Source: Deltaproteobacteria bacterium (GTDB lineage Bacteria > CG2-30-53-67). From it: DNA of 8,836 nt. Position numbers and translations under genes: made by a program. Every line of letters starts with the position of its first letter. Within the stretch, counting starts at the first letter, position 1. The stretch lies in assembly GCA_013151235.1 (NCBI GenBank), contig JAADIO010000073.1, positions 1 through 8,836 of the forward strand, in the 5' to 3' direction. The notes below the pieces were generated by a model. It was not told the origin of the DNA. It searched no databases and worked only from the letters and a program-made list of their open reading frames with translations. This document shows positions 1 to 8,836 of the stretch, one piece after another.

Positions 1-227
1 GCAAAGGGCGTCCTCCCCGCCGGAAGGGGATTCTTGAAGATCAGAGCGTAGGGACAGCGCACCGAAACGAGGCATTCTTCACAGGACTGTCCCCTCCGCC
101 GACAGACCATCCGCTGAAGCATCTGTCCCATCCCCCCCCGGAGAGTGGACCCCTTGTAGGGAGGAAGGTTCAATCGTTCCCGGGCACGGATCTGAAATGA
201 ATATGCGGAAAAAAAGAACGAATCCAT
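1..227 (-). CDS. cas6: Cas6 pre-crRNA processing endoribonuclease, N-terminal 75 codons (runs off the left edge)
   Basis: An open frame without a stop runs from the ATG at 227 to the left edge, 8 nt after the DHH-protein gene. Residues 19-34 read LNLPPYKGSTLRGGMG, the typical Cas6 entry (usually P-x-[FY]-K-G-S-x-LRGAFG). A cysteine cluster follows at C42, C49, C52 and C58 with CPYALIF (58-64), also typical of the Cas6 variants found with type III systems. The next residues (KNPLPAGRTPF) match the proline-rich stretch after it. Known: Cas6 is a RAMP-fold, metal-independent RNase that cuts CRISPR repeats to give the crRNA 5' handle; its catalytic and glycine-loop regions lie outside this window. 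A run of eight G (coding strand, 132-139) falls in the LRGGM segment and is in frame as given. A CRISPR array or adaptation genes may lie further left. Confidence 0.88.
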   Translation of the reverse strand, partial: MDSFFFSAYSFQIRARERLNLPPYKGSTLRGGMGQMLQRMVCRRRGQSCEECLVSVRCPYALIFKNPLPAGRTPF

Positions 228-232
228 TCGGT

Positions 233-237
233 CTCCT
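233..237 (-). promoter_or_regulatory. Shine-Dalgarno site of cas6
   Basis: AGGAG overlaps the TAG stop of the DHH-protein gene and lies 5 nt before the ATG at 227. It supports this start for the Cas6 frame that runs to the left edge. Confidence 0.75.
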
Positions 238-1033
238 ATAAAGCTTCAAGCCTCCCGGCAAGGAAACGGAGGATCTCCTCCCCTTCCCGGGAATGGCATT
301 CCTTGAACCAGTATCCCCGCTGTGGAAGGGCACCGCCGTACACTCCGCCGGGGAAACGCCTGTCCAGAAGATGGATCCACTCCCCTTCCCCATAAAAGTC
401 CACCTCCGAAGGACAAAGGATGAGAAGGTTCTGGACTCCAGGGCCACCGAGGACGGACTCCATTCGGTCCGTCACCACGGCCGTCTTCGTGTGCGGAAGC
501 CTGGCCAAGGTCAGCGCCCCGCCGGCAAGGGTCGAGGCCTCGGAGACGGCACGTTCCCCAGCCTGTTCCTCTTCCTCCGTGATCCCCTGAGCCTTCCGGT
601 CGGCGGCGCGAACCTGTATGATCTCTTCCTTCGTGGCCCCGATTTCGATCATGGCAGGGATATATCCCCGGTCGTTTTCGGCAACAAGATCGAATTCTCT
701 CGTCCACCGTTCCGGGGGAAGACCGAGTAGGGAGAAAACCTGATGGAGCGACGTCGGACGGTCGGCCCCGGCCTTCTTCCCATGGTGGTCGATCTCAACG
801 ATTTGATCCGGGTCGAGACCGAGATCATTCGGAAGCTCCACCAGCACGGGGGTCCTCCCCTTCTGCAGGGTGCCGGTGATTTCCTCCCTGTAGGCGGAAG
901 CGGAGACCTCCGCTCCCCAGGCAAGCCCCTTGTCAAAGAAAGGGACCCCCTCCCGGCAGAGCAGTTCCGCTATCATCTCCATCTCGAGGTCATGTCCACC
1001 GAGAAAAAAAGTATAAGAAGATTCAACCATCAT
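236..1033 (-). CDS. DHH-motif protein, putative diverged DHH-family phosphoesterase (candidate CRISPR signal-degrading enzyme)
   Basis: A 265-residue cytosolic protein (no signal peptide or TM segment) lies 11 nt after the TIGR03986-like gene. Seen: an N-terminal strand-loop FFLGGHDLEMEMIAELL (9-25) with acidic residues where DHH enzymes bind metal; a strand VLVELPND; the signature VEIDHHG (79-85); then FDLVAENDRGYIPAM (114-128), placed like the post-DHH Asp segment of this superfamily; and near the C-terminus FPGGVYGGALPQRGYWF (227-243), a glycine-rich loop reminiscent of the substrate loop of DHHA1 domains. At 265 residues it is somewhat shorter than the usual 300-plus of DHH-DHHA1 nanoRNases. 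Known: an NrN phosphodiesterase of the DHH/DHHA1 type degrades SAM-AMP in CorA-linked type III-B systems. Inferred: a similar off-switch here. I do not recognise it as Csx19. Two ATGs are adjacent (1033 and 1030); AAGGA at 1037-1041 is better spaced for 1030. The stop overlaps the Cas6 Shine-Dalgarno site. Confidence 0.72.
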   Translation of the reverse strand: MMVESSYTFFLGGHDLEMEMIAELLCREGVPFFDKGLAWGAEVSASAYREEITGTLQKGRTPVLVELPNDLGLDPDQIVEIDHHGKKAGADRPTSLHQVFSLLGLPPERWTREFDLVAENDRGYIPAMIEIGATKEEIIQVRAADRKAQGITEEEEQAGERAVSEASTLAGGALTLARLPHTKTAVVTDRMESVLGGPGVQNLLILCPSEVDFYGEGEWIHLLDRRFPGGVYGGALPQRGYWFKECHSREGEEILRFLAGRLEAL

Positions 1034-1044
1034 CCATCCTTATT

Positions 1045-3522
1045 TCAATACTTTTTCAAAGTTGGAAGATTCGTGCTTGCCCTATTTAATGGCCTGAGAA
1101 AATCATGTCTCCTCTTGTCGTTTTCCACAAACCACTTGAAGGTCTCATCCTCCGGACCCTGCCCCTGGACGAGGGGGGTATGGACAGGCTCGGTTACCTT
1201 TGCAGGATCGCCCAGGAGTTCCAGGGCGGGTCGGATGTCTTCATTCATCTTATCCCGGAATCCCTTGCGGAAAGCATCATAGGTAATGGCACCTGCAACT
1301 TCCGCCTCTGCAACTTCTGCCTCTGCCTCTCTGCCATATCGCCCCGGCCAGTCTTCCGGAGCATCCTCCTTCCGCCAGACCTTTGCATAACGTGGCGAGG
1401 AGAAGATCTCATCCGTCGTATACCGATCTTCACGGTTTACCAGAAAGAGTCCTATCGGATCGATCCGGACCTTCCCGAGGCCGATCGGTTTCCCCGTTCC
1501 GATCTTGTGGCGGAATGCCTCCGTCGGCCGGAGTGCGTAGCAGAGAAGGCCCAGTTCCCTTTTGCTCAGGTTGTCGAAATCGACATGAAAGTAAAAGACC
1601 GCTCCAGCACGGACGGGAGTGACACTTACTTTCTGCTTGCAACGGTCTTTCTCCTCGCAGGGGGTCGGTGGCTGTGGATCCGTCTTCCAGCACTCCTTCT
1701 CTAACTGGTCTGAGCTGTGATGGAGATAGAACTTCCTTCCCTGGGGATGATGACTCCCCGGTTGCAGATCCTTCTTGGCGATGTAGGCCCCCTGCCCGTC
1801 GGACTTCTTGAAGTAGAGGGCCGGGGAGGGGGGCTTGGGGGAGTCGAGGATCTTCAGGACCACGGGATCGAGATAGGGGCTGGCCTCACGACCGATGGGG
1901 GTCTGTCCGTCCTGATCGGTTATTCCCTCGAAGAGGGCGTCGGCAAAGCGAACCCGCCCCGCAAGGGCGCGTGCGGTATCCCGCTCTTTCTCCTTCCCCT
2001 CCTCAACAAAACCGAAGAGCTGTTCGGCGAGGGTGATCTGCTTCCTTTCTCCATTGAAGGGAAGAAGTTCTTTATCGACGGCCCGAAAGAAATCCCGGCC
2101 TCGTGCGCCTTCCATCCTGTTATTTACGATCCATTCGACCCGCCCCCGCCAGATGGAAGAAAGGGAGATCTCTTCAATGGTATTCCAGCGGGGATGCGGC
2201 TTGAAGAAAACGAGGTCTCCCTCCTTGAGACGGAACTTCTTCCCGTCATTGGCTGGATCCATATTCCGTTTAGTATCCTTCGGCTCATAGGGGAGCTTCC
2301 CGTTCTCATCGGCGTCGGTCCTTGCGTCGGCCAGTTCATGGAAGCGATTCACGACATCATCGGGAATCAAGAAGGCCTCCCAAGCTTCCGGTTTCTCCGG
2401 ACAAGGGATAAAGATTTCGTGTTTCTTTGTATTCGGGATGGCCCGGTCGCCCCAGCAGCCGAGGACGCGGATGATCCCGCGGGTGTAGACGCTCCGTTCG
2501 TGATCCGGAATCTCGTCCCAGGGACGGGGAACTGCATCTTCACGCGCCTTCTGTGAAACAAGAAACGAGTTTCTTGTTACATGCAACTGTGCATCGCCAC
2601 ACAATTCATGACTCCCGGTCCAGCTCCGCCTCTGAAGCTTCATTCCGTAATACTTCGGACTATCGGCACGGAAGGTCCGAAAAGTGAAACGTCCCGAATT
2701 TCGAATACTCAATCTATCTCCGATATAGACCTTGAGGTTCGGTTCGGGGAACATATTCTGATATTCTGCGGGAAGGGGGAACCTATCGTTATTATTCTTT
2801 TGCAAGGTAGGAAGGGTAAGAGGAACAAGAAAATATTTATCCTGACCACCTTTTTCTTTCTCAACATGGATCATCCCGATGGCGGAGAGGCTCTTTGTCA
2901 TTTCCTTTCGGTAAGAATAAGGATATTCGGATCTTTCCAACACCCGCAGTGCCGAATTGCTCGCCGCCTCGGCGATACTTGAAATCAACCCTTTAAGGGT
3001 CGTGGCCGGGACGGCGGGCTTCCCTCCTCTTTCGTAGGGGGCGACGCAGGCGGGGCATTCTTGCTTACCCTTCCTCACGCGCTTTGCCCCGACAAAGATC
3101 GGGCTCTCAGACTTTAACCGGCAGACGATCCGGCCGGAATAGCTACCTTCCACATATCGGTCGTGCCTCACATGTCCGTTTTCCTGACTATCGAACTTCT
3201 CAACGCTCAGATCGGCCGGCCTGTTGTCTTTCAGGACCGGAACGAAATGGTAGGGATTATGAAACTGCGGGGCATCGTCCATCCGCCCCCGGCCTTCTCC
3301 CCGCCCCTGGGGGTGCGCCCTCTGACGTAACGGACCCGGCCCGGCTCCATAGTGTCTCGTCTGGAGACCTTGCTTCCTTTTTTTCTTTTTTTTCTTTTGC
3401 TTACCCGGTGACGATCCGCTATCTTTTTTCGACCCTCCCTGGGCCTGTACCGATTTTTCTTCCCTGGGTGCAAGGCCCCGTTTCCTGCGCATCTCTTCCT
3501 GCCATTCCCTCATATCAACCAT
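1045..3522 (-). CDS. Large RAMP subunit, TIGR03986-like (Cas7 with large insertion)
   Basis: The product is 825 residues from the ATG chosen by its Shine-Dalgarno site, overlapping the Cas7-2x end by 8 nt. Residues 1-85 are a low-complexity, strongly basic tail with a lysine run (KQKKKKKKRKQ, about 41-51) and Gly/Arg-rich segments. The family's hallmark FHNPYHFVP follows at 87-95. Next are the RAMP strand and loop SESPIFVGAKR (138-148), CPAC (156-159) and the helix start VPATTLKGLISS (171-182). A long middle region contains SSIWRGRVEW and AEQLFGFVEEG. The glycine loop HKIGTGKPIGLGKV (672-685) then closes the fold. This gives one Cas7 fold split by about 450 residues, as in the III-D 'Cas7-insertion' subunit. 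The Csm3 cleavage Asp is not seen before PATTLKG, so this module is probably not catalytic. Expected role: crRNA/target binding in the effector complex. The C-terminus carries a small EAEVA repeat. Confidence 0.85.
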   Translation of the reverse strand: MVDMREWQEEMRRKRGLAPREEKSVQAQGGSKKDSGSSPGKQKKKKKKRKQGLQTRHYGAGPGPLRQRAHPQGRGEGRGRMDDAPQFHNPYHFVPVLKDNRPADLSVEKFDSQENGHVRHDRYVEGSYSGRIVCRLKSESPIFVGAKRVRKGKQECPACVAPYERGGKPAVPATTLKGLISSIAEAASNSALRVLERSEYPYSYRKEMTKSLSAIGMIHVEKEKGGQDKYFLVPLTLPTLQKNNNDRFPLPAEYQNMFPEPNLKVYIGDRLSIRNSGRFTFRTFRADSPKYYGMKLQRRSWTGSHELCGDAQLHVTRNSFLVSQKAREDAVPRPWDEIPDHERSVYTRGIIRVLGCWGDRAIPNTKKHEIFIPCPEKPEAWEAFLIPDDVVNRFHELADARTDADENGKLPYEPKDTKRNMDPANDGKKFRLKEGDLVFFKPHPRWNTIEEISLSSIWRGRVEWIVNNRMEGARGRDFFRAVDKELLPFNGERKQITLAEQLFGFVEEGKEKERDTARALAGRVRFADALFEGITDQDGQTPIGREASPYLDPVVLKILDSPKPPSPALYFKKSDGQGAYIAKKDLQPGSHHPQGRKFYLHHSSDQLEKECWKTDPQPPTPCEEKDRCKQKVSVTPVRAGAVFYFHVDFDNLSKRELGLLCYALRPTEAFRHKIGTGKPIGLGKVRIDPIGLFLVNREDRYTTDEIFSSPRYAKVWRKEDAPEDWPGRYGREAEAEVAEAEVAGAITYDAFRKGFRDKMNEDIRPALELLGDPAKVTEPVHTPLVQGQGPEDETFKWFVENDKRRHDFLRPLNRASTNLPTLKKY
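1294..1329. repeat. 15-bp tandem repeat inside the TIGR03986-like gene
   Basis: Two 15-bp units (1294-1308 and 1309-1323) differ at one base and are followed by a 6-bp partial unit. They encode EAEVAEAEVA near residues 732-742. The repeat length is a multiple of three, so copy-number change would keep the frame. Confidence 0.75.
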
Positions 3523-4999
3523 GGACCGCCTCCTTTTGCAACTCCGCAATCTTTTGCCGGAATTGTTCTACAACCTCACTAACCTGAGGATTCTCCGCTT
3601 TCCACCAGTCCCCTGTTATCTCCGCCCGGCTGGCCCCGTACCCCTTGGTCGCGCCGAAACCGAAGGTGATGTCTCCCTCAATGAGGTCCCGGAGTGTCAG
3701 GGCAAGGAGGCCCCGCATCCAGGGCTCGGTCCGGGAACAATCGACTGTGATTTTCCCGGTCAGGCGCGGTTCCAGGACCGACAGGGCGTTGAACTTGGCG
3801 CCGTGGGCTCCGCCGCCGGTAAATCGGTCGATGGCAAGGAAATCCTGGAAGAAGCCGCTCGCTTCCTCTTCTGCCTGGACGAAATCGGTCACCTCCAGCG
3901 GAGAGCGCCAGCCGGCGGCTCCGAACAACCTGCAGGCGGGACAAAGCCGGTCCACTTCCTCGGGATAATTGAGCGACCGGCAGCAGGGATCGCTGTCGGA
4001 ATGACAGGCGGCCTTATCCCCTCCGAGGGTCCGGAGGATCCGCTCGGCCTGGCTCCGGAAGGCCCCGCGGAATGAGCGTGAGGGGAGATAGGCCCGGCTG
4101 TTCCGGTCGAGGATCGGCGCGTGATCGGGATGTGTTTCATCGCTTTCCTGCTCCTTGTCCTTCTTTTCCGGGCATCTGCTCGGGTCATTCACCAGGAAGG
4201 GGGAATCGAATGTGAGTGTTACATCAAGGACGATCTTTTCGATCGAAGGCTTGGCCGGAGAGCCGGCCTTTGGCTTCAATTCGTCGATCTCATCTTCCCC
4301 AAGTTCGGCGAAGGGAAAATCTGCCTGATTCTCTTTCTTGATCCATTCCCGGACGGCCTCGCCGGTCGCACGACGGACCTTGCCCAACTTCCATGAGAGC
4401 CTCCCCCACCCGTCTCCCGTGGAGGCGCCGAGGGTGACGGGGTCGTCCGGATCGTTGAATCCCTCCAGGGCATGGAGCAGGATCCCCACCTCCTCCTCGT
4501 CAAGGCCGCTGCCGGTGATCGTAACGGTAAAGGGGACGCCGGGGGGGACAAACTCATAATGTCTCAGCTTCTTCGCGCTCGCCGTCCGGGTCACCCGGTC
4601 GATGGCGACGGAGGCGGCCGCACCGGTATGCCGCACCGCATCCCAGTAGGGAGGTGGATTCGTCAGCTTGACATCCTTGATATAGGCATAATGGAATTCG
4701 GCCTTTCCCCCTACGGCATCTTTCTTCTTCGTGTCTTCGCTTCCAAGGAGTTCATCAAGCTTACCGTTCGCCCAACGCCGCTTCAACCAGGCCCGGAGGT
4801 CTCCCTTGAGGGTCGAGCCCGGGATACAGGCACGATCCTCGTAGTCGGTAATCACCGACGAGATGTCGATTTTCTCCTTTTTGCCGTTTTCGTTCTCTTT
4901 CGTCAGTGCATCCCGTTCCGTGGTGTCGCCGTCCCCGATATGGAGGGGAGAGTCCGTCGTCAGTGTTCCCGTGATCTTCCATCGTACCGGAAAGCTCAT
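3515..4999 (-). CDS. cas7: Double Cas7 backbone subunit (Cas7-2x type, two Csm3-like RAMP domains)
   Basis: This 494-residue protein contains two Cas7/Csm3-type RAMP modules in tandem. Module 1 (about 1-205): SPLHIGDGDT (17-26), CIPGSTLKGDLRAWL (58-72), VAIDRVTRTASAKKL (131-145) and the glycine-rich loop LGASTGDGWGRLSW (190-203). Module 2 (about 255-462): SPFLVNDPS (266-274), LPSRSFRGAFRSQAERILR (305-323), a CPACRLFG segment (353-360), FLAIDRFTGGGAHGAKF (387-403) and FGFGATKGYGASRAEI (446-461). The spacing D-x5-D upstream of the LP/IPG motif in Csm3, whose first Asp cuts target RNA, is matched by Asp292...Asp298 in module 2. In module 1 it is nearly matched by Asp45...Asp52. Two active target-cleavage sites are therefore plausible. 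Known: III-Dv carries a Cas7-2x subunit forming part of the crRNA-binding backbone. The modules are joined by a charged linker (about 208-255). The gene overlaps the fusion gene by 4 nt and the next gene by 8 nt. Confidence 0.9.
   Translation of the reverse strand: MSFPVRWKITGTLTTDSPLHIGDGDTTERDALTKENENGKKEKIDISSVITDYEDRACIPGSTLKGDLRAWLKRRWANGKLDELLGSEDTKKKDAVGGKAEFHYAYIKDVKLTNPPPYWDAVRHTGAAASVAIDRVTRTASAKKLRHYEFVPPGVPFTVTITGSGLDEEEVGILLHALEGFNDPDDPVTLGASTGDGWGRLSWKLGKVRRATGEAVREWIKKENQADFPFAELGEDEIDELKPKAGSPAKPSIEKIVLDVTLTFDSPFLVNDPSRCPEKKDKEQESDETHPDHAPILDRNSRAYLPSRSFRGAFRSQAERILRTLGGDKAACHSDSDPCCRSLNYPEEVDRLCPACRLFGAAGWRSPLEVTDFVQAEEEASGFFQDFLAIDRFTGGGAHGAKFNALSVLEPRLTGKITVDCSRTEPWMRGLLALTLRDLIEGDITFGFGATKGYGASRAEITGDWWKAENPQVSEVVEQFRQKIAELQKEAVHG
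3529..3534 (-). promoter_or_regulatory. Shine-Dalgarno site deciding the start of the TIGR03986-like gene
   Basis: AGGAGG lies 6 nt before the ATG at 3522. This supports the protein start MVDMREW and argues against a TTG start at 3549, which would lie upstream of this site and further inside the Cas7-2x gene. Confidence 0.75.
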
Positions 5000-6833
5000 G
5001 ATGCCCCTCCTTTCTTCGCAAGGTCGATCAGTTTCCCGTCATGGACCGGCAGGTTGACGGCGATCTCGCCGTATCCGTTCTCCGGTATGTAGGGGCAGTT
5101 CGTCCAGTGGTCCCCTTTTTGGCCGTTCCGGGCGTACTTTTTTATCGCCCACGCCGGGAGGGGAAGCCCCTCTTTGAGCCATTTCTCGATCATCCGCTTC
5201 CCGTCCGCTTCCTTGCCGGTCTTCGCCTTGAGGACGAAGACGCTCCCCGCCTCGGTCAGGAGGTAGGGGTTGTAGGGTTTGCCGTCCTGAAAGCGTTTCC
5301 AGAGGTAGAATCCCCCGGCAAGGCTCTGGCGGGCATAGAAATGGGAGAGTTGCAGAGTCCTGTCGGAAAGCTCTTCCCAGATCTCTTCGTAGGCCTTCCT
5401 CAACTCGGCCTCGCCGCTTGTCTCGTCCAACTTCTCCGGATCGAAAAGAATCGCCGGTGTCTGGAGGGTGACGATCCAGAGTCCATTCTCGGCCTCGGCC
5501 TTCGAAGGGAAGTACGACGTGATCGACTCTTGCTTCTTCGGGACCTCCACATCAACGGCCACCTTGGTCTTCCCCATTCCCCGCAGACCGACGGCAAAGA
5601 GCCCGGCAAGCTGTTCGGCCACTTTGGATCGATCCGAATCACCGACCCGGGAGAGATCCACACCTCCGATCCAGCAGCAACCGTCGGGGCGAACCATCTC
5701 GTAGGCGAAGAGCTGTTCATCGGCCGCCTTGCGACGTTTTTTTTCGATGGCGGTCCGCACGCGTAATTCCGTACCAGGCGTCATCCATCCGAAATATTCA
5801 TCCACATCCCCCCGCTCCTTCCAGTCCACATCAAATTTCGGGGCCACGGGAGGACCCTCGGGACAGGCTGCCTCCTCCTTCCGGGCCATATCAGCTAAAT
5901 GGATTTTCTCATTCTCTTTATACTTCACCAGCGAAAGGGGCGGACGGACGGGACGCTTTGCACTCCCCTCCGGGGCGGGAAAGGCGTGGAGAAAACGGAT
6001 CTTCGTGAAATTCCTGCAAAGCTCCGGTCGTGTAGCGTCGAAATCGTTCGTGATGAAACAACTATCCTTCCCCAGAAGATCCGCCCACGTCCGGGCCAGC
6101 GCCCCGGCAAGGGCCGCGCCGGGGATCTCGGTCTTCGATTCGAAGAGATTGTTCCCCACCTTACGGTCGGCAAGACAGAACGGGGACTTGGGCCGGATTA
6201 TAAGTGGGAAAGAGAAATCGGATGGTGGAGTGGTCTTTTGATCCTCGATCTTTCTTGTTGTGAGTTCTATTTTGACACCATCCAGTCTCCCGAAACCGAC
6301 GGTCCGTTCCGCACCAAGGCTCGGGATCCAGCGCAGGCCGGTCTCGCACTGCCCCTTGACTTTTTCAGCATTTTCAGTCGAGGGCGCCATGAAACGGACC
6401 GTACCGGAAAAGGAAACCCTTTCGCCCGGTGCAAAGGGGGCTTCGACAACCTGGTAGGCCCCCTTGTCCACAGCGCCCCGGCATTCGTCGATCCGGATCC
6501 GGAAAGCGATTCCTTCCCTGTCCGCCCCATCGTGTACGAAGTCGTCGAAATGGAGTCGCCCCTGGACAGGCTCCACACCTCCCGGCCCGCTCCCGGATTT
6601 TTTTCCAAGGAGGCTTTTGATTACGGTGTCAGAGATGAAACCGGAATCGGCAAGACACAACTCGTCCCAGGCGCTTCCCGAAGACGCCCCTTCACGAGGG
6701 TGCCGGGCAGATAGTAACGGTCCTGCCGGTCCTTCGCCATGGGGGAATCGATACCGTACGGCCCTGCCGCCGTGGAATGGGTCAGCACCGGGCCTATCAG
6801 TTGCAGCGTGATCTTCATCTCAGCGTCATACAT
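4996..6833 (-). CDS. csx10: Cas7-Cas5 (Csx10-like) fusion RAMP subunit, interrupted by a frameshift
   Basis: Two frames together encode one protein of about 612 residues: frame 1 from 6833 to about 6675, frame 2 from about 6669 to the stop at 4996. The N-terminal module is Cas7/Csm3-like. KITLQLIGPVLT is the first RAMP strand; GIDSPMAKD (27-35) matches the Csm3 segment with the RNA-cleaving Asp, here Asp29; YLPGTLVKGRLR (41-52) is the conserved RAMP helix start. Its glycine-rich loop is SLGAERTVGFGRL (about 173-185). A second RAMP region with the features of Csx10/Cas5 follows: strand SFPLIIRPKSPF, then IPGAALAGALA (about 237-247), a glycine loop GLRGMGK (about 416-422), and a C-terminal part with SLAGGFYLW, AGSVFVL and GYGEIAV. 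Known: Csx10 is the Cas5-type subunit of III-D, which caps the crRNA 5' handle, and III-Dv has a Cas7-5-11 fusion. A separate Cas11 domain cannot be recognised; one charged helical stretch (about 472-502) is the only candidate. The stop overlaps the next start by ATGA. Confidence 0.82.
5006..5011 (-). promoter_or_regulatory. Shine-Dalgarno site of the Cas7-2x gene
   Basis: AGGAGG within AAAGGAGGGG, 6 nt before the ATG at 4999 and inside the end of the upstream gene. Together with the ATGA stop/start overlap it points to coupled translation of the two subunits. Confidence 0.75.
6670..6674 (-). other. Frameshift site inside the Cas7-Cas5 fusion gene
   Basis: On the coding strand, frame 1 reads LVKGRLREA up to the GAA codon ending at 6675, and the conserved continuation WDELCLADSGF starts at the TGG at 6669. 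The five bases between (GCGCC) leave the reading frame one base short or two bases long. Frame 1 runs on without homology to a stop at 6621. No slippery heptamer is present here. It is a sequencing error or a real mutation; the sequence alone cannot tell which. Confidence 0.85.
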
Positions 6834-6841
6834 CCCCATAT

Positions 6842-6847
6842 CCTCCT
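6842..6847 (-). promoter_or_regulatory. Shine-Dalgarno site deciding the start of the Cas7-Cas5 fusion
   Basis: AGGAGG overlaps the cas10 TAG stop. It is only 2 nt from the ATG at 6839 but 8 nt from the in-frame ATG at 6833, so the second ATG (protein start MYDAEMK) is the better choice. The overlap suggests translational coupling of the two genes. Confidence 0.7.
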
Positions 6848-8285
6848 ATTCAACAAGGTAGTCCCACAACAGTGCAAGGTGAAGCCAGCGAAGGACCTCG
6901 CCGCCGAAGGGGTCCTTCAAGTCTTCCAGCGCTTTTTTTGTCTCAAGGTCAAGACTCTTGATGGTCTTCTCGATCACCTTTATCGTTCCGGGATCTCCGC
7001 GGGTCAGCCCCTTCACGATGGCATAAAGCTTCCTGCGGGGGAAATTCTCCCGGAGTACAGCAACCTTATCCAGAGCGCTCCCCATCTTCCCTCCCTCCAG
7101 GATCATATCGTCCGGCGAACAGCCGTTGGGGCAAATCTCACGCCGGTAGCCCATCAGGTCCCGTCCGATATGGTCGAAGGACTCGAGGACCTCATAGGCA
7201 AAGAGGTTTTCCTCACGGCTCTTCTCCTTGGCCAGTTCGGCCAGATCCTTTGCGAGCTTCGTGATCCGGTGGATCGGAGCGTTGTGGTGACAAAAGACGA
7301 TGCCGCCGCCGTGCGTGAGCCGGTTCCCATGAAATTCCCAGCTCTCCGATTCTTCATAGAAGCGTTTCAAAACCCGCCACCCAAGCCAGGCCGGGACAAT
7401 CCAGATGATCTCGTCCCCGCCCCAGAGCAGGGTCTCCAGTCGGTAGTTATCTTTTGCCGAGATCCACTCCTTGCGGTCCTTCATCTCCGACAGCAGGGTC
7501 TTGAGAAATCCCCGACGGTAGTTCTTGATCGTGGTATCAAAATCTTCCTGGAGTTTTCTTGTGTTACAGACATCGCTCTGGAGACCACCGAAGCCGTTCC
7601 CATCGAGGTAGATGACAGCCATCTTGTGATGAAGGTTCCCCCGGGAACGATCCGAGGTAAGCTCGTCGAAATCATTGGCAAAGTTCAGGGGAACCAACTC
7701 CGAAGCTTTCTTTTGATCTACCTTTTTGAGCTTGACCAGTTCTTTCCTGTAAAATTCCTGCTTCTCTTCACGGCCGTATTTCCAGCGTTGCCAGACCGAC
7801 TCGCTGATTTTCTTACCTTTAGGCCCAGCCTTCACGGCAGGCCGTACGCCGTCCAGTTCGCAGGGGACAACATTTTTGACTCGACTGGTCTTTGGAACAG
7901 CCACGGTCGGGGACCGCATCTGCTGGAAACGGTTCTTCGCAAGCAGCGTCTCCCGGACCGTGATAAAGTCATCTTCGGCCCTGAGGAAATCAACGACAAA
8001 GGTGGCGTGTTTGAATCGAGGATCCTTCTTCAGACAATCCATCACAGAGTTGCAAATTTGTCTAGCTTTGGAATCATCAGCGTCACCGTCATCCATCTCA
8101 AAGCGAAAAAGTCCGGAAGAGGCGCCCGTGGTGACCGGTTCCAGCCGGGGTACGCGTTTCTGAACATGACCCACAGCGTCGAGCATCAAGAGACTCCCCC
8201 CCCGGGCCGTGCTCAAATCCTGGGTATCGAAGACAAAGTTCAAGAGGTTTACCCCCTCCATGCGGAGATAGTAGGTTGCCGTCAT
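6846..8285 (-). CDS. cas10: Cas10, type III signal-producing subunit; short, HD-less form with GGDE motif
   Basis: This 479-residue protein is short for Cas10, which is usually well above 600. It begins directly in the first Palm region: NFVFDTQDLSTARGGS (16-31) matches the conserved Cas10 start of Palm1, so there is no N-terminal HD nuclease. FVVDFL (96-101) is a likely Palm1 strand. CELDGVRPA (142-150) matches the conserved linker before Palm2. Palm2 has the first metal-site strand VIYLDGNGFG (224-233, Asp228) and the hairpin WGGDEIIW (288-295). The cyclase motif is therefore GGDE, not GGDD. It continues into THGGGIVFCHHNAP (324-337), the usual Palm2 strand-helix, and a helical C-terminal domain. 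Known: Cas10 Palm2 makes cyclic oligoadenylates or, in CorA-linked systems, SAM-AMP when target RNA is bound. Inferred: this one signals only and does not cut DNA. The start is set by a strong Shine-Dalgarno site. The stop overlaps the Shine-Dalgarno site of the next gene. Confidence 0.9.
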   Translation of the reverse strand: MTATYYLRMEGVNLLNFVFDTQDLSTARGGSLLMLDAVGHVQKRVPRLEPVTTGASSGLFRFEMDDGDADDSKARQICNSVMDCLKKDPRFKHATFVVDFLRAEDDFITVRETLLAKNRFQQMRSPTVAVPKTSRVKNVVPCELDGVRPAVKAGPKGKKISESVWQRWKYGREEKQEFYRKELVKLKKVDQKKASELVPLNFANDFDELTSDRSRGNLHHKMAVIYLDGNGFGGLQSDVCNTRKLQEDFDTTIKNYRRGFLKTLLSEMKDRKEWISAKDNYRLETLLWGGDEIIWIVPAWLGWRVLKRFYEESESWEFHGNRLTHGGGIVFCHHNAPIHRITKLAKDLAELAKEKSREENLFAYEVLESFDHIGRDLMGYRREICPNGCSPDDMILEGGKMGSALDKVAVLRENFPRRKLYAIVKGLTRGDPGTIKVIEKTIKSLDLETKKALEDLKDPFGGEVLRWLHLALLWDYLVE

Positions 8286-8289
8286 GATC

Positions 8290-8295
8290 CCTCCT
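8290..8295 (-). promoter_or_regulatory. Shine-Dalgarno site of cas10
   Basis: AGGAGG inside AAAGGAGGG, ending 4 nt before the ATG at 8285. It lies in the 18-nt gap after the CorA stop codon and fixes the Cas10 start. No promoter or terminator is visible in this gap. Confidence 0.8.
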
Positions 8296-8303
8296 TTCGT
8301 TTA

Positions 8304-8836
8304 TTACTTCTTCTTTGGCTTCTGTCGCGCAAGCCTGTCAAAATACTTGTACAGACGATTGGAACACTTTATAGTCAGGAGCAACAGAAAGGTCGATCCT
8401 GCCATGGTCAATATGAAGACCAGCCACGAATGTTTCTTCCAATCCATTATCCAGATATTCATCCCCAGGAACCCCGTGGCCACGGCCAGGACCATCCCCA
8501 CCGTAGCAACAACGGTCAGGCGTGTGGTCGCCCTGGTCTCCTGCTCCGCCTCCTGGATCTCGAGGTATTCATGGCTGCTGTTGATCTCCTTCTCTACTTC
8601 CTCGAAGAGTTCATCCACATCCATATGCTTCCGAGCAAGAGTATACATCTCGATCGCCTGCTGCTGGTTGGATAGGAGGGGAAACTGATAGAGATTCGCG
8701 AAAAGGGAAAAGTTCCAACGAAGTTTATCGAAGGTTTCATGCCAGTCCTTCTCCCCCTTTTCCCTCGCATCGGCGGAAATCTTGCTAAGCGCCCCGCTGA
8801 ACCGGAAGAGGACCACCCGGATATAAAGGAGAAGAA
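8304..8836 (-). CDS. corA: CorA-like membrane protein, C-terminal part (5' end beyond the right edge); putative CRISPR type III effector
   Basis: The frame stays open to the right edge. A GTG at 8816 could be read as a start, but the upstream codons continue without a stop and only a CorA C-terminal half is present, so the gene is most likely cut by the window. Counting from that GTG, residues 10-97 are a charged, mostly helical stalk. TM1 is about 99-120 and ends in the GMN signature (GFLGMNIW, 115-122). A short loop (IMDWKKH) follows, then TM2 at about 130-151 and a basic tail ending in PKKK. This is the topology of the CorA Mg2+ channel family in the inner membrane. Known: CorA-like proteins are membrane effectors of some type III CRISPR systems and respond to SAM-AMP. 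Inferred: it has that role here, because it lies 18 nt upstream of cas10 on the same strand. The ligand-binding N-terminal domain is not visible. An ordinary metal transporter is possible but unlikely in this context. Confidence 0.85.
   Translation of the reverse strand, partial: LLLYIRVVLFRFSGALSKISADAREKGEKDWHETFDKLRWNFSLFANLYQFPLLSNQQQAIEMYTLARKHMDVDELFEEVEKEINSSHEYLEIQEAEQETRATTRLTVVATVGMVLAVATGFLGMNIWIMDWKKHSWLVFILTMAGSTFLLLLTIKCSNRLYKYFDRLARQKPKKK

What the first reader, a model, noticed from the sequence alone, without database searches (positions are those of the whole stretch)
1..8836. CorA effector and DHH-motif protein bracket a type III-D complex: a possible SAM-AMP signalling circuit outside III-B
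Seen: one operon with a GMN-containing CorA, an HD-less Cas10, fused III-D RAMP subunits, a DHH-motif protein and Cas6, and no HEPN, CARF or other nuclease effector. Known: in type III-B of Bacteroides fragilis, Cas10 makes SAM-AMP, CorA responds to it and an NrN (DHH/DHHA1) phosphodiesterase removes it. Inference: this III-D/III-Dv-like operon uses the same logic, so the signal and membrane effector may have moved between complex types as a cassette.
Basis: partly seen in the sequence, partly recalled or inferred. Interest (0 to 1): 0.85.

Follow-up and report, generated by a model that had tools for sequence, protein, structure and literature searches.

The report
CorA–NrN signalling module in type III-D CRISPR
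A bacterial CRISPR defence operon of the III-D kind carries the membrane-channel effector and the signal-destroying enzyme known from SAM-AMP signalling in the III-B kind, which makes it possible to test directly whether that unusual alarm signal is used outside III-B.

Summary
The window encodes a divergent CRISPR CorA, an HD-less Cas10, three III-D RAMP proteins, a true NrN (40% identical to a PDB chain named NrN) and the start of Cas6. The scaffold continues beyond the window and supplies the CorA sensor domain.

The combination recurs in 15 other III-D loci from Alphaproteobacteria, Nitrosomonas, Acidobacteriota, Planctomycetes, Hydrogenedentes and Bacteroidota, including the isolates Rhodobacter capsulatus DSM 1710 and Nitrosomonas sp. 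Nm51. The 2025 CRISPR classification states that known SAM-AMP-cleaving enzymes are not encoded in III-D loci; these loci contradict that.

NrN and CorA trees split into a III-B and a III-D lineage. One complete cmr1-6 operon (L015) carries the III-D-type pair, so the pair has been exchanged between complex types.

The messenger itself is unresolved. NrN and core CorA residues are conserved. But III-D Cas10s lack both acidic acceptor-site residues linked to SAM-AMP synthesis in III-B, and share an invariant arginine there. One close relative has a cyclic-nucleotide (CARF) membrane sensor beside NrN; another has S-4TM instead of CorA/NrN.

Verdict: new variant of a known kind. SAM-AMP or a close analogue is most likely (about 0.5), not shown.

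The parts
8304..8834 (-). CRISPR-associated CorA effector, C-terminal (transmembrane) part; the N-terminal sensor part continues outside the window at scaffold C73:8861-10051, behind a run of 24 Ns
   Evidence: PADLOC CorA 7e-32, Pfam CorA 29.2 bits over cut-off 27; second CorA piece found beyond the window, read
8457..8465 (-). GMN motif of CorA
   Evidence: read from the translation
6846..8285 (-). Cas10, 479 aa, no HD domain; starts at palm 1
   Evidence: PADLOC Cas10 7e-30; PDB 9wxh_B 3.5e-80; model pLDDT 86.4, nearest fold III-D Cas10 8s9x Z 25.9
7410..7421 (-). Cas10 catalytic motif GGDE (residues 289-292), in place of GGDD
   Evidence: alignment A2: GGDE in 10 of 10; L110 has GGDD, L114 AGDE
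4996..6839 (-). RAMP A (III-D Cas5/Csm4-like); one gene split into 6621-6839 and 4996-6660 by a single-base frameshift
   Evidence: PADLOC III-D Csm4 1.9e-75; PDB 9wxh_C 1.3e-105; frames
3515..4999 (-). RAMP B (two Cas7-like domains, III-D)
   Evidence: PADLOC Cas7_IIId 2.4e-50; PDB 9wxh_D first half 6e-83
1045..3549 (-). RAMP C (TIGR03986 family, III-D)
   Evidence: NCBIfam TIGR03986 287.5 bits, cut-off 161; PDB 9wxh_D second half 9e-92
236..1033 (-). NrN-family DHH phosphodiesterase, predicted messenger-degrading enzyme
   Evidence: PADLOC C3a116 5.7e-72 and DHH_CorA 4.1e-43; PDB 9lq9 'NrN' 3e-30
782..790 (-). DHH motif of NrN (residues 82-84)
   Evidence: D82 and H83 invariant and H84 near-invariant in III-B, III-D and solo NrNs
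3..227 (-). N-terminal 75 residues of Cas6; gene cut by the scaffold end
   Evidence: PADLOC Cas6 3.6e-20; no other Cas6 piece in the genome

Best explanation
A type III-D RNA-targeting CRISPR complex signals through a CorA-NrN module. Shown by sequence: III-D complex, HD-less Cas10 with an intact palm motif (GGDE), CRISPR-type CorA, NrN with its catalytic residues. Inferred: crRNA-guided binding of foreign RNA switches on the Cas10 palms, which join AMP to a small acceptor. The product binds the CorA sensor domain and opens the membrane channel; NrN hydrolyses it. The messenger is most likely SAM-AMP or a very close analogue, made in an acceptor pocket built differently from that of III-B.
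For: NrN is 40% identical to PDB NrN with all motifs kept; 32 of 39 positions conserved in III-B NrNs are the same in III-D NrNs. B. fragilis NrN cut SAM-AMP but not pApA or cA2, cA3, cA4 or cA6 (PMC10600005). CorA: R152 and D219 equivalents (window R226, D298) and the following Arg (R300) are kept across III-B and III-D. 16 III-D loci carry NrN, 13 with CorA in the same locus, including an NrN-CorA fusion (L046) and an NrN-Cas10 fusion (L030, 816 aa). A III-B operon (L015) carries the III-D-type pair, so both complex types can be linked to it.
Against: No conserved acidic residue in III-D Cas10 at the D70 or E151 region, whichever register is chosen; an invariant Arg (R119, 17 of 17) lies there instead. 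Second residues of the mutated CorA pairs differ in the window (Y227, N299). CARF-TM beside NrN in L110. Cas10 of a S-4TM locus (L111) looks the same as CorA-linked ones. NrN relatives also exist in genomes without CRISPR CorA. CorA without NrN in Tistrella and L114.
Confidence: 0.5

Rival explanations
1. The same circuit logic, but the messenger is not SAM-AMP: Cas10 joins AMP to ATP or another small acceptor (for example a linear di-adenylate or a new AMP conjugate), and III-D CorA and NrN have diverged to match.
For: Acidic acceptor-site signature absent, invariant Arg present; III-D CorA and NrN form lineages separate from III-B; second sensor residues changed; GGDE palm.
Against: NrN residues mostly shared with III-B NrN, whose known substrate is SAM-AMP only (PMC10600005); the III-D-type pair also sits in an operon with a III-B complex (L015), whose Cas10 motif GDEI may still hold the D70 Asp (by eye).
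Confidence: 0.25
2. The complex makes cyclic oligoadenylate for CARF-type effectors, and CorA-NrN is a secondary or second-signal branch; the window's own CARF effector lies in the missing sequence beyond Cas6 or elsewhere.
For: L110 has a CARF-TM gene about 130 bp downstream of NrN on the same strand, and its Cas10 has GGDD; a CARF-nuclease match occurs among neighbours of III-D loci (not pinned to one protein with certainty); S-4TM in L111.
Against: No CARF-TM homologue in the window's genome (99% complete) or in 16 of the other 18 genomes searched; most loci show CorA and NrN as the only recognised effector genes.
Confidence: 0.17
3. The window's locus is decaying: RAMP A is frameshifted, so no functional complex is made.
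For: One-base frameshift near 6680; two relatives show deletion junctions in CorA (L010, L021).
Against: Everything else is open and conserved; draft assembly with Ns beside it, so an error is as likely; relatives are intact.
Confidence: 0.08

Closest known systems
CorA-1 type III-B SAM-AMP system of Bacteroides fragilis (Cmr, CorA, NrN; PMC10600005)
   Same: CRISPR CorA with a soluble sensor domain and C-terminal transmembrane part; NrN with the same motifs; cyclase-type Cas10; genes in one operon
   Different: Complex is III-D, not Cmr; CorA and NrN belong to a separate lineage; Cas10 lacks the D70/E151 signature and has GGDE
PDB 9wxh/9wxi/9wxj complex (Cas10, RAMP, fused TIGR03986 RAMP)
   Same: Closest solved relatives of Cas10 (3.5e-80), RAMP A (1.3e-105), RAMP B and C
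   Different: RAMP B and C are fused there; its effector genes and messenger are not known to me and no paper on it was found
III-D CorA systems of Actinomyces with Csm6-2 (PMC11229360)
   Same: CorA in a III-D locus
   Different: Those lack SAM-AMP-degrading enzymes and carry Csm6-2; the window has NrN and no Csm6-2 was seen
PADLOC families C3a116 and DHH_CorA
   Same: The window protein matches both profiles; association with CorA already noted in that library
   Different: The library names give no III-D assignment, substrate or mechanism

Membership tests
Type III-D CRISPR-Cas | III-D Cas5/Csm4-like and multi-Cas7 RAMP proteins | tested here: met
   PADLOC III-D Csm4 1.9e-75, Cas7_IIId 2.4e-50, TIGR03986 over its cut-off
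Type III-D CRISPR-Cas | Cas10 of III-D fold | tested here: met
   Model nearest to 8s9x/8s9t III-D Cas10, Z 25.9, 2.9 A over 422 residues; next Pfu Cmr2 Z 21.3
Type III-D CRISPR-Cas | Linked CRISPR array | tested here: inconclusive
   No array on the 12.6-kb scaffold; no Cas1 in the genome; the R. capsulatus relative L022 has repeats beside its cas genes
CRISPR-associated CorA effector | Matches CRISPR CorA rather than housekeeping transporters | tested here: met
   blastp to CRISPR CorAs down to 1e-114; E. coli CorA no hit, ZntB E 8.9
CRISPR-associated CorA effector | Sensor residues R152/R153 and D219/D220 (needed for immunity in B. fragilis) | tested here: inconclusive
   First residue of each pair kept (R226, D298), second changed (Y227, N299) in the window and nearest relatives
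NrN phosphodiesterase | Homology to NrN with GGxDLEM, DHH, NDxxY and DxxxQG motifs | tested here: met
   PDB NrN E 3e-30, 40% identity; 32 of 39 positions shared
NrN phosphodiesterase | Cleaves SAM-AMP | not testable with these tools
   needs an enzyme assay
SAM-AMP-synthesising Cas10 of CorA-1 type | Conserved acidic D70 and E151 equivalents in the acceptor site | tested here: not met
   III-B set 12/12 D and 12/12 E; III-D set: no column above 10/17 acidic in either region, R119 17/17 (secondary-structure anchoring)
SAM-AMP-synthesising Cas10 of CorA-1 type | Makes SAM-AMP on activation | not testable with these tools
   needs a biochemical assay

The most novel reading that the evidence does not exclude
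The III-D Cas10 clade makes a messenger that is neither a cyclic oligoadenylate nor SAM-AMP, sensed by its own CorA lineage and erased by its own NrN lineage: a third class of type III signal.
Probability: 0.18. Interest if true: 0.9.

Novelty: new variant of a known kind. Interest (0 to 1): 0.62.

Why it matters
The 2025 CRISPR classification (PMC12669027) left open whether CorA in III-D senses SAM-AMP, partly because no SAM-AMP-cleaving enzyme was known in III-D loci. Here 16 III-D loci have NrN, mostly with CorA, including isolates that can be grown or cloned from. That makes the question directly testable. The III-B operon with a III-D-type CorA-NrN pair indicates that sensor and eraser move between complexes as a unit, while the Cas10 acceptor site does not carry the same signature. 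Either SAM-AMP synthesis evolved twice with different pockets, or one effector family serves more than one messenger.

Tried and rejected
Housekeeping CorA: rejected. NrN in the phage and viral collections: none found. Diverged NrN fused to the long Tistrella CorA: some motifs look alike by eye, but shuffled alignments and profile comparison give no support (z -0.9 to 1.4), so not claimed. Known degrading domain in the long CorAs of Tistrella and L114: none by Pfam or PDB sequence search; the first 300 residues of the L114 ORF look like a mis-set start. First idea that the III-B L015 Cas10 lacks D70 (a MAFFT column) was dropped: its motif GDEI probably carries the Asp. Profile-profile alignment of palm 1 between III-B and III-D failed, so only register-independent statements are made. 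The exact locus of the CARF-nuclease match was not pinned down; L034:17302-18135 is the likely bearer by its C-terminal motif. The S-4TM and CorA-free loci show no Cas10 residue that separates them from CorA-linked ones apart from two scattered positions.
Full report
What is there. The window is the first 8836 bases of a 12,602-base scaffold in a 2.62-Mb, 99% complete genome of a small, unnamed phylum (8 genomes held). One minus-strand operon runs CorA, Cas10, RAMP A, RAMP B, RAMP C, NrN, Cas6. Profiles give each gene clearly. The CorA gene is interrupted by 24 Ns; its sensor domain lies beyond the window. Upstream are an FGE-sulfatase gene and an unassigned ORF. The scaffold ends inside Cas6, no other Cas6 piece or Cas1 exists in the assembly, and no array was seen on the scaffold.

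Complex type. RAMP profiles are III-D. The Cas10 model (pLDDT 86) is closest to solved III-D Cas10 (8s9x, Z 25.9). By sequence the closest solved relatives are chains of 9wxh-9wxj, in which RAMP B and C are one chain; no paper on these entries was found. Cas10 starts at palm 1, so it has no HD nuclease. Its palm motif is GGDE.

The DHH protein is NrN. It matches a PDB chain named NrN at 3e-30 and is 40% identical to it. Of 39 positions conserved in III-B NrNs, 32 are the same in III-D NrNs. B. fragilis NrN cleaves SAM-AMP but not pApA or cA2, cA3, cA4 or cA6 (PMC10600005).

CorA is the CRISPR kind. It matches CRISPR CorAs from III-D loci down to 1e-114 and from III-B loci down to 1e-20; E. coli CorA gives no hit. 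Of the sensor residues whose mutation abolished immunity in B. fragilis (R152/R153, D219/D220), the first of each pair is kept in III-B and III-D, the second differs in the window (Y227, N299). The transfer of B. fragilis numbering rests on the motif and spacing in a Bacteroides homologue (L063).

Recurrence. A scan of 84,980 genomes with an NrN alignment returned the best 80 of 112 loci. Neighbourhoods plus later loci show 16 III-D loci with NrN, window included: L004, L010, L011, L013, L016, L018-L023, L025, L030, L034, L046, L110. Thirteen have CorA in the same locus (partial in L034); L010 and L021 have CorA remnants; L011 is cut. L046 has NrN fused to CorA; L030 has NrN fused to Cas10 in one 816-residue frame. 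Because this set was chosen by NrN, it says nothing about frequency. A search led by Cas10 in about 1,170 genomes found, besides already known loci, Tistrella (CorA, no NrN), L109 (CorA, cut), L110 (CorA, NrN), L111 (S-4TM, neither), L112 (neither nearby), L114 (CorA, no NrN) and L113 (cut). CorA is therefore common and NrN frequent but not universal.

Against the literature. The 2025 classification says that CorA occurs in some III-D loci, that it is unclear what it senses there, and that known SAM-AMP-cleaving enzymes are not encoded in III-D loci (PMC12669027). These loci are counter-examples. PADLOC already held both NrN profiles as CorA-associated or CRISPR-associated, so the protein family is not new. 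Earlier surveys saw CorA in three Cas10 clusters (PMC10600005, PMC11229360). One of them mapped subtype and degrading enzyme for each CorA in a figure that could not be read here, so single III-D/NrN cases may already be in it.

Cassette exchange. In the NrN tree all 39 III-B rows fall on one side (SH-aLRT 99) and all III-D rows on the other; the CorA tree agrees. L015, a Planctomycete contig with all six cmr genes, has NrN and CorA in overlapping frames directly behind cmr6, and both group with the III-D lineage; placing them with III-B is rejected for CorA (AU p 0.0002) and more weakly for NrN (p 0.03). The direction of transfer is not known. The group was noticed before the test, so the p values are somewhat optimistic.

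The signal. In B. fragilis Cas10, D70 and E151 sit by the acceptor and the double mutant makes no detectable SAM-AMP (PMC10600005). Twelve III-B homologues here are 12/12 D and 12/12 E at the equivalents (D68, E129 of L063). In 17 III-D Cas10s no column in the matching strand or helix exceeds 10/17 acidic, and R119 is 17/17; conversely D20 (16/16) and D23 (16/17) are acidic where III-B has basic R19/K20. Secondary-structure maps of both models anchor the regions to within about five residues; residue-level superposition was not possible. So the III-B signature is absent, but an alternative acidic site (D20/D23) is conceivable. The Cas10 of CorA-free L111 and L112 looks the same, so no residue marks a SAM-AMP maker in this clade.

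Possible second signals. L110 has a CARF-TM gene about 130 bp behind NrN on the same strand (PADLOC 7e-61) and is the only clade member with GGDD. The window's genome has no such gene. A CARF-nuclease match lies among neighbours of the III-D loci, probably L034:17302-18135. L111 has S-4TM (Pfam 4e-85), and its genome has no NrN.

Conclusion. The operon and its recurrence are well supported; the circuit logic (Cas10 product, CorA effector, NrN eraser) is likely; SAM-AMP as the product is the best single guess, at about one in two, and needs an assay.

Noticed in passing
L031, L033, L036-L041, L044, L047, L048, L053, L065, L073: Stand-alone NrN relatives with all catalytic motifs in small Alphaproteobacteria and Patescibacteria, some with several copies in one locus (L037, L044), no cas genes nearby and no CRISPR CorA in the 13 genomes searched. 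What they degrade is unknown.
   Followed up: partly
L030:9968-12418: NrN fused to the N-terminus of Cas10 in one 816-residue frame (Reyranella MAG).
   Followed up: partly
L016:4116-9989: RAMP A, B and C in a single 1957-residue frame beside a Cas10, a gRAMP-like fusion that keeps Cas10.
   Followed up: no
L111:10567-11496: S-4TM effector, otherwise known from CBASS, directly upstream of a III-D Cas10 of the same clade; no NrN in that genome and no CorA in the locus.
   Followed up: partly
L110:1772-2431: CARF-TM (Cam1-like) gene directly behind NrN in a complete CorA-NrN III-D operon whose Cas10 has GGDD.
   Followed up: partly
window 6621-6839 / 4996-6660: RAMP A is split by a one-base frameshift near 6680; sequencing error or real damage cannot be told apart.
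   Followed up: partly
L010:3068-4237 and L021:3282-5006: In-frame junctions that join CorA to Cas10 (L010) and CorA to RAMP A (L021) with loss of the CorA membrane part; deletion or misassembly.
   Followed up: no
scaffold C73:10243-11187 (outside the window): FGE-sulfatase (SUMF1-like) gene upstream of CorA.
   Followed up: no
G012:C212:4463-5200: A second NrN inside an 830-residue open frame in the Thermoanaerobaculia genome; fusion partner not identified.
   Followed up: no
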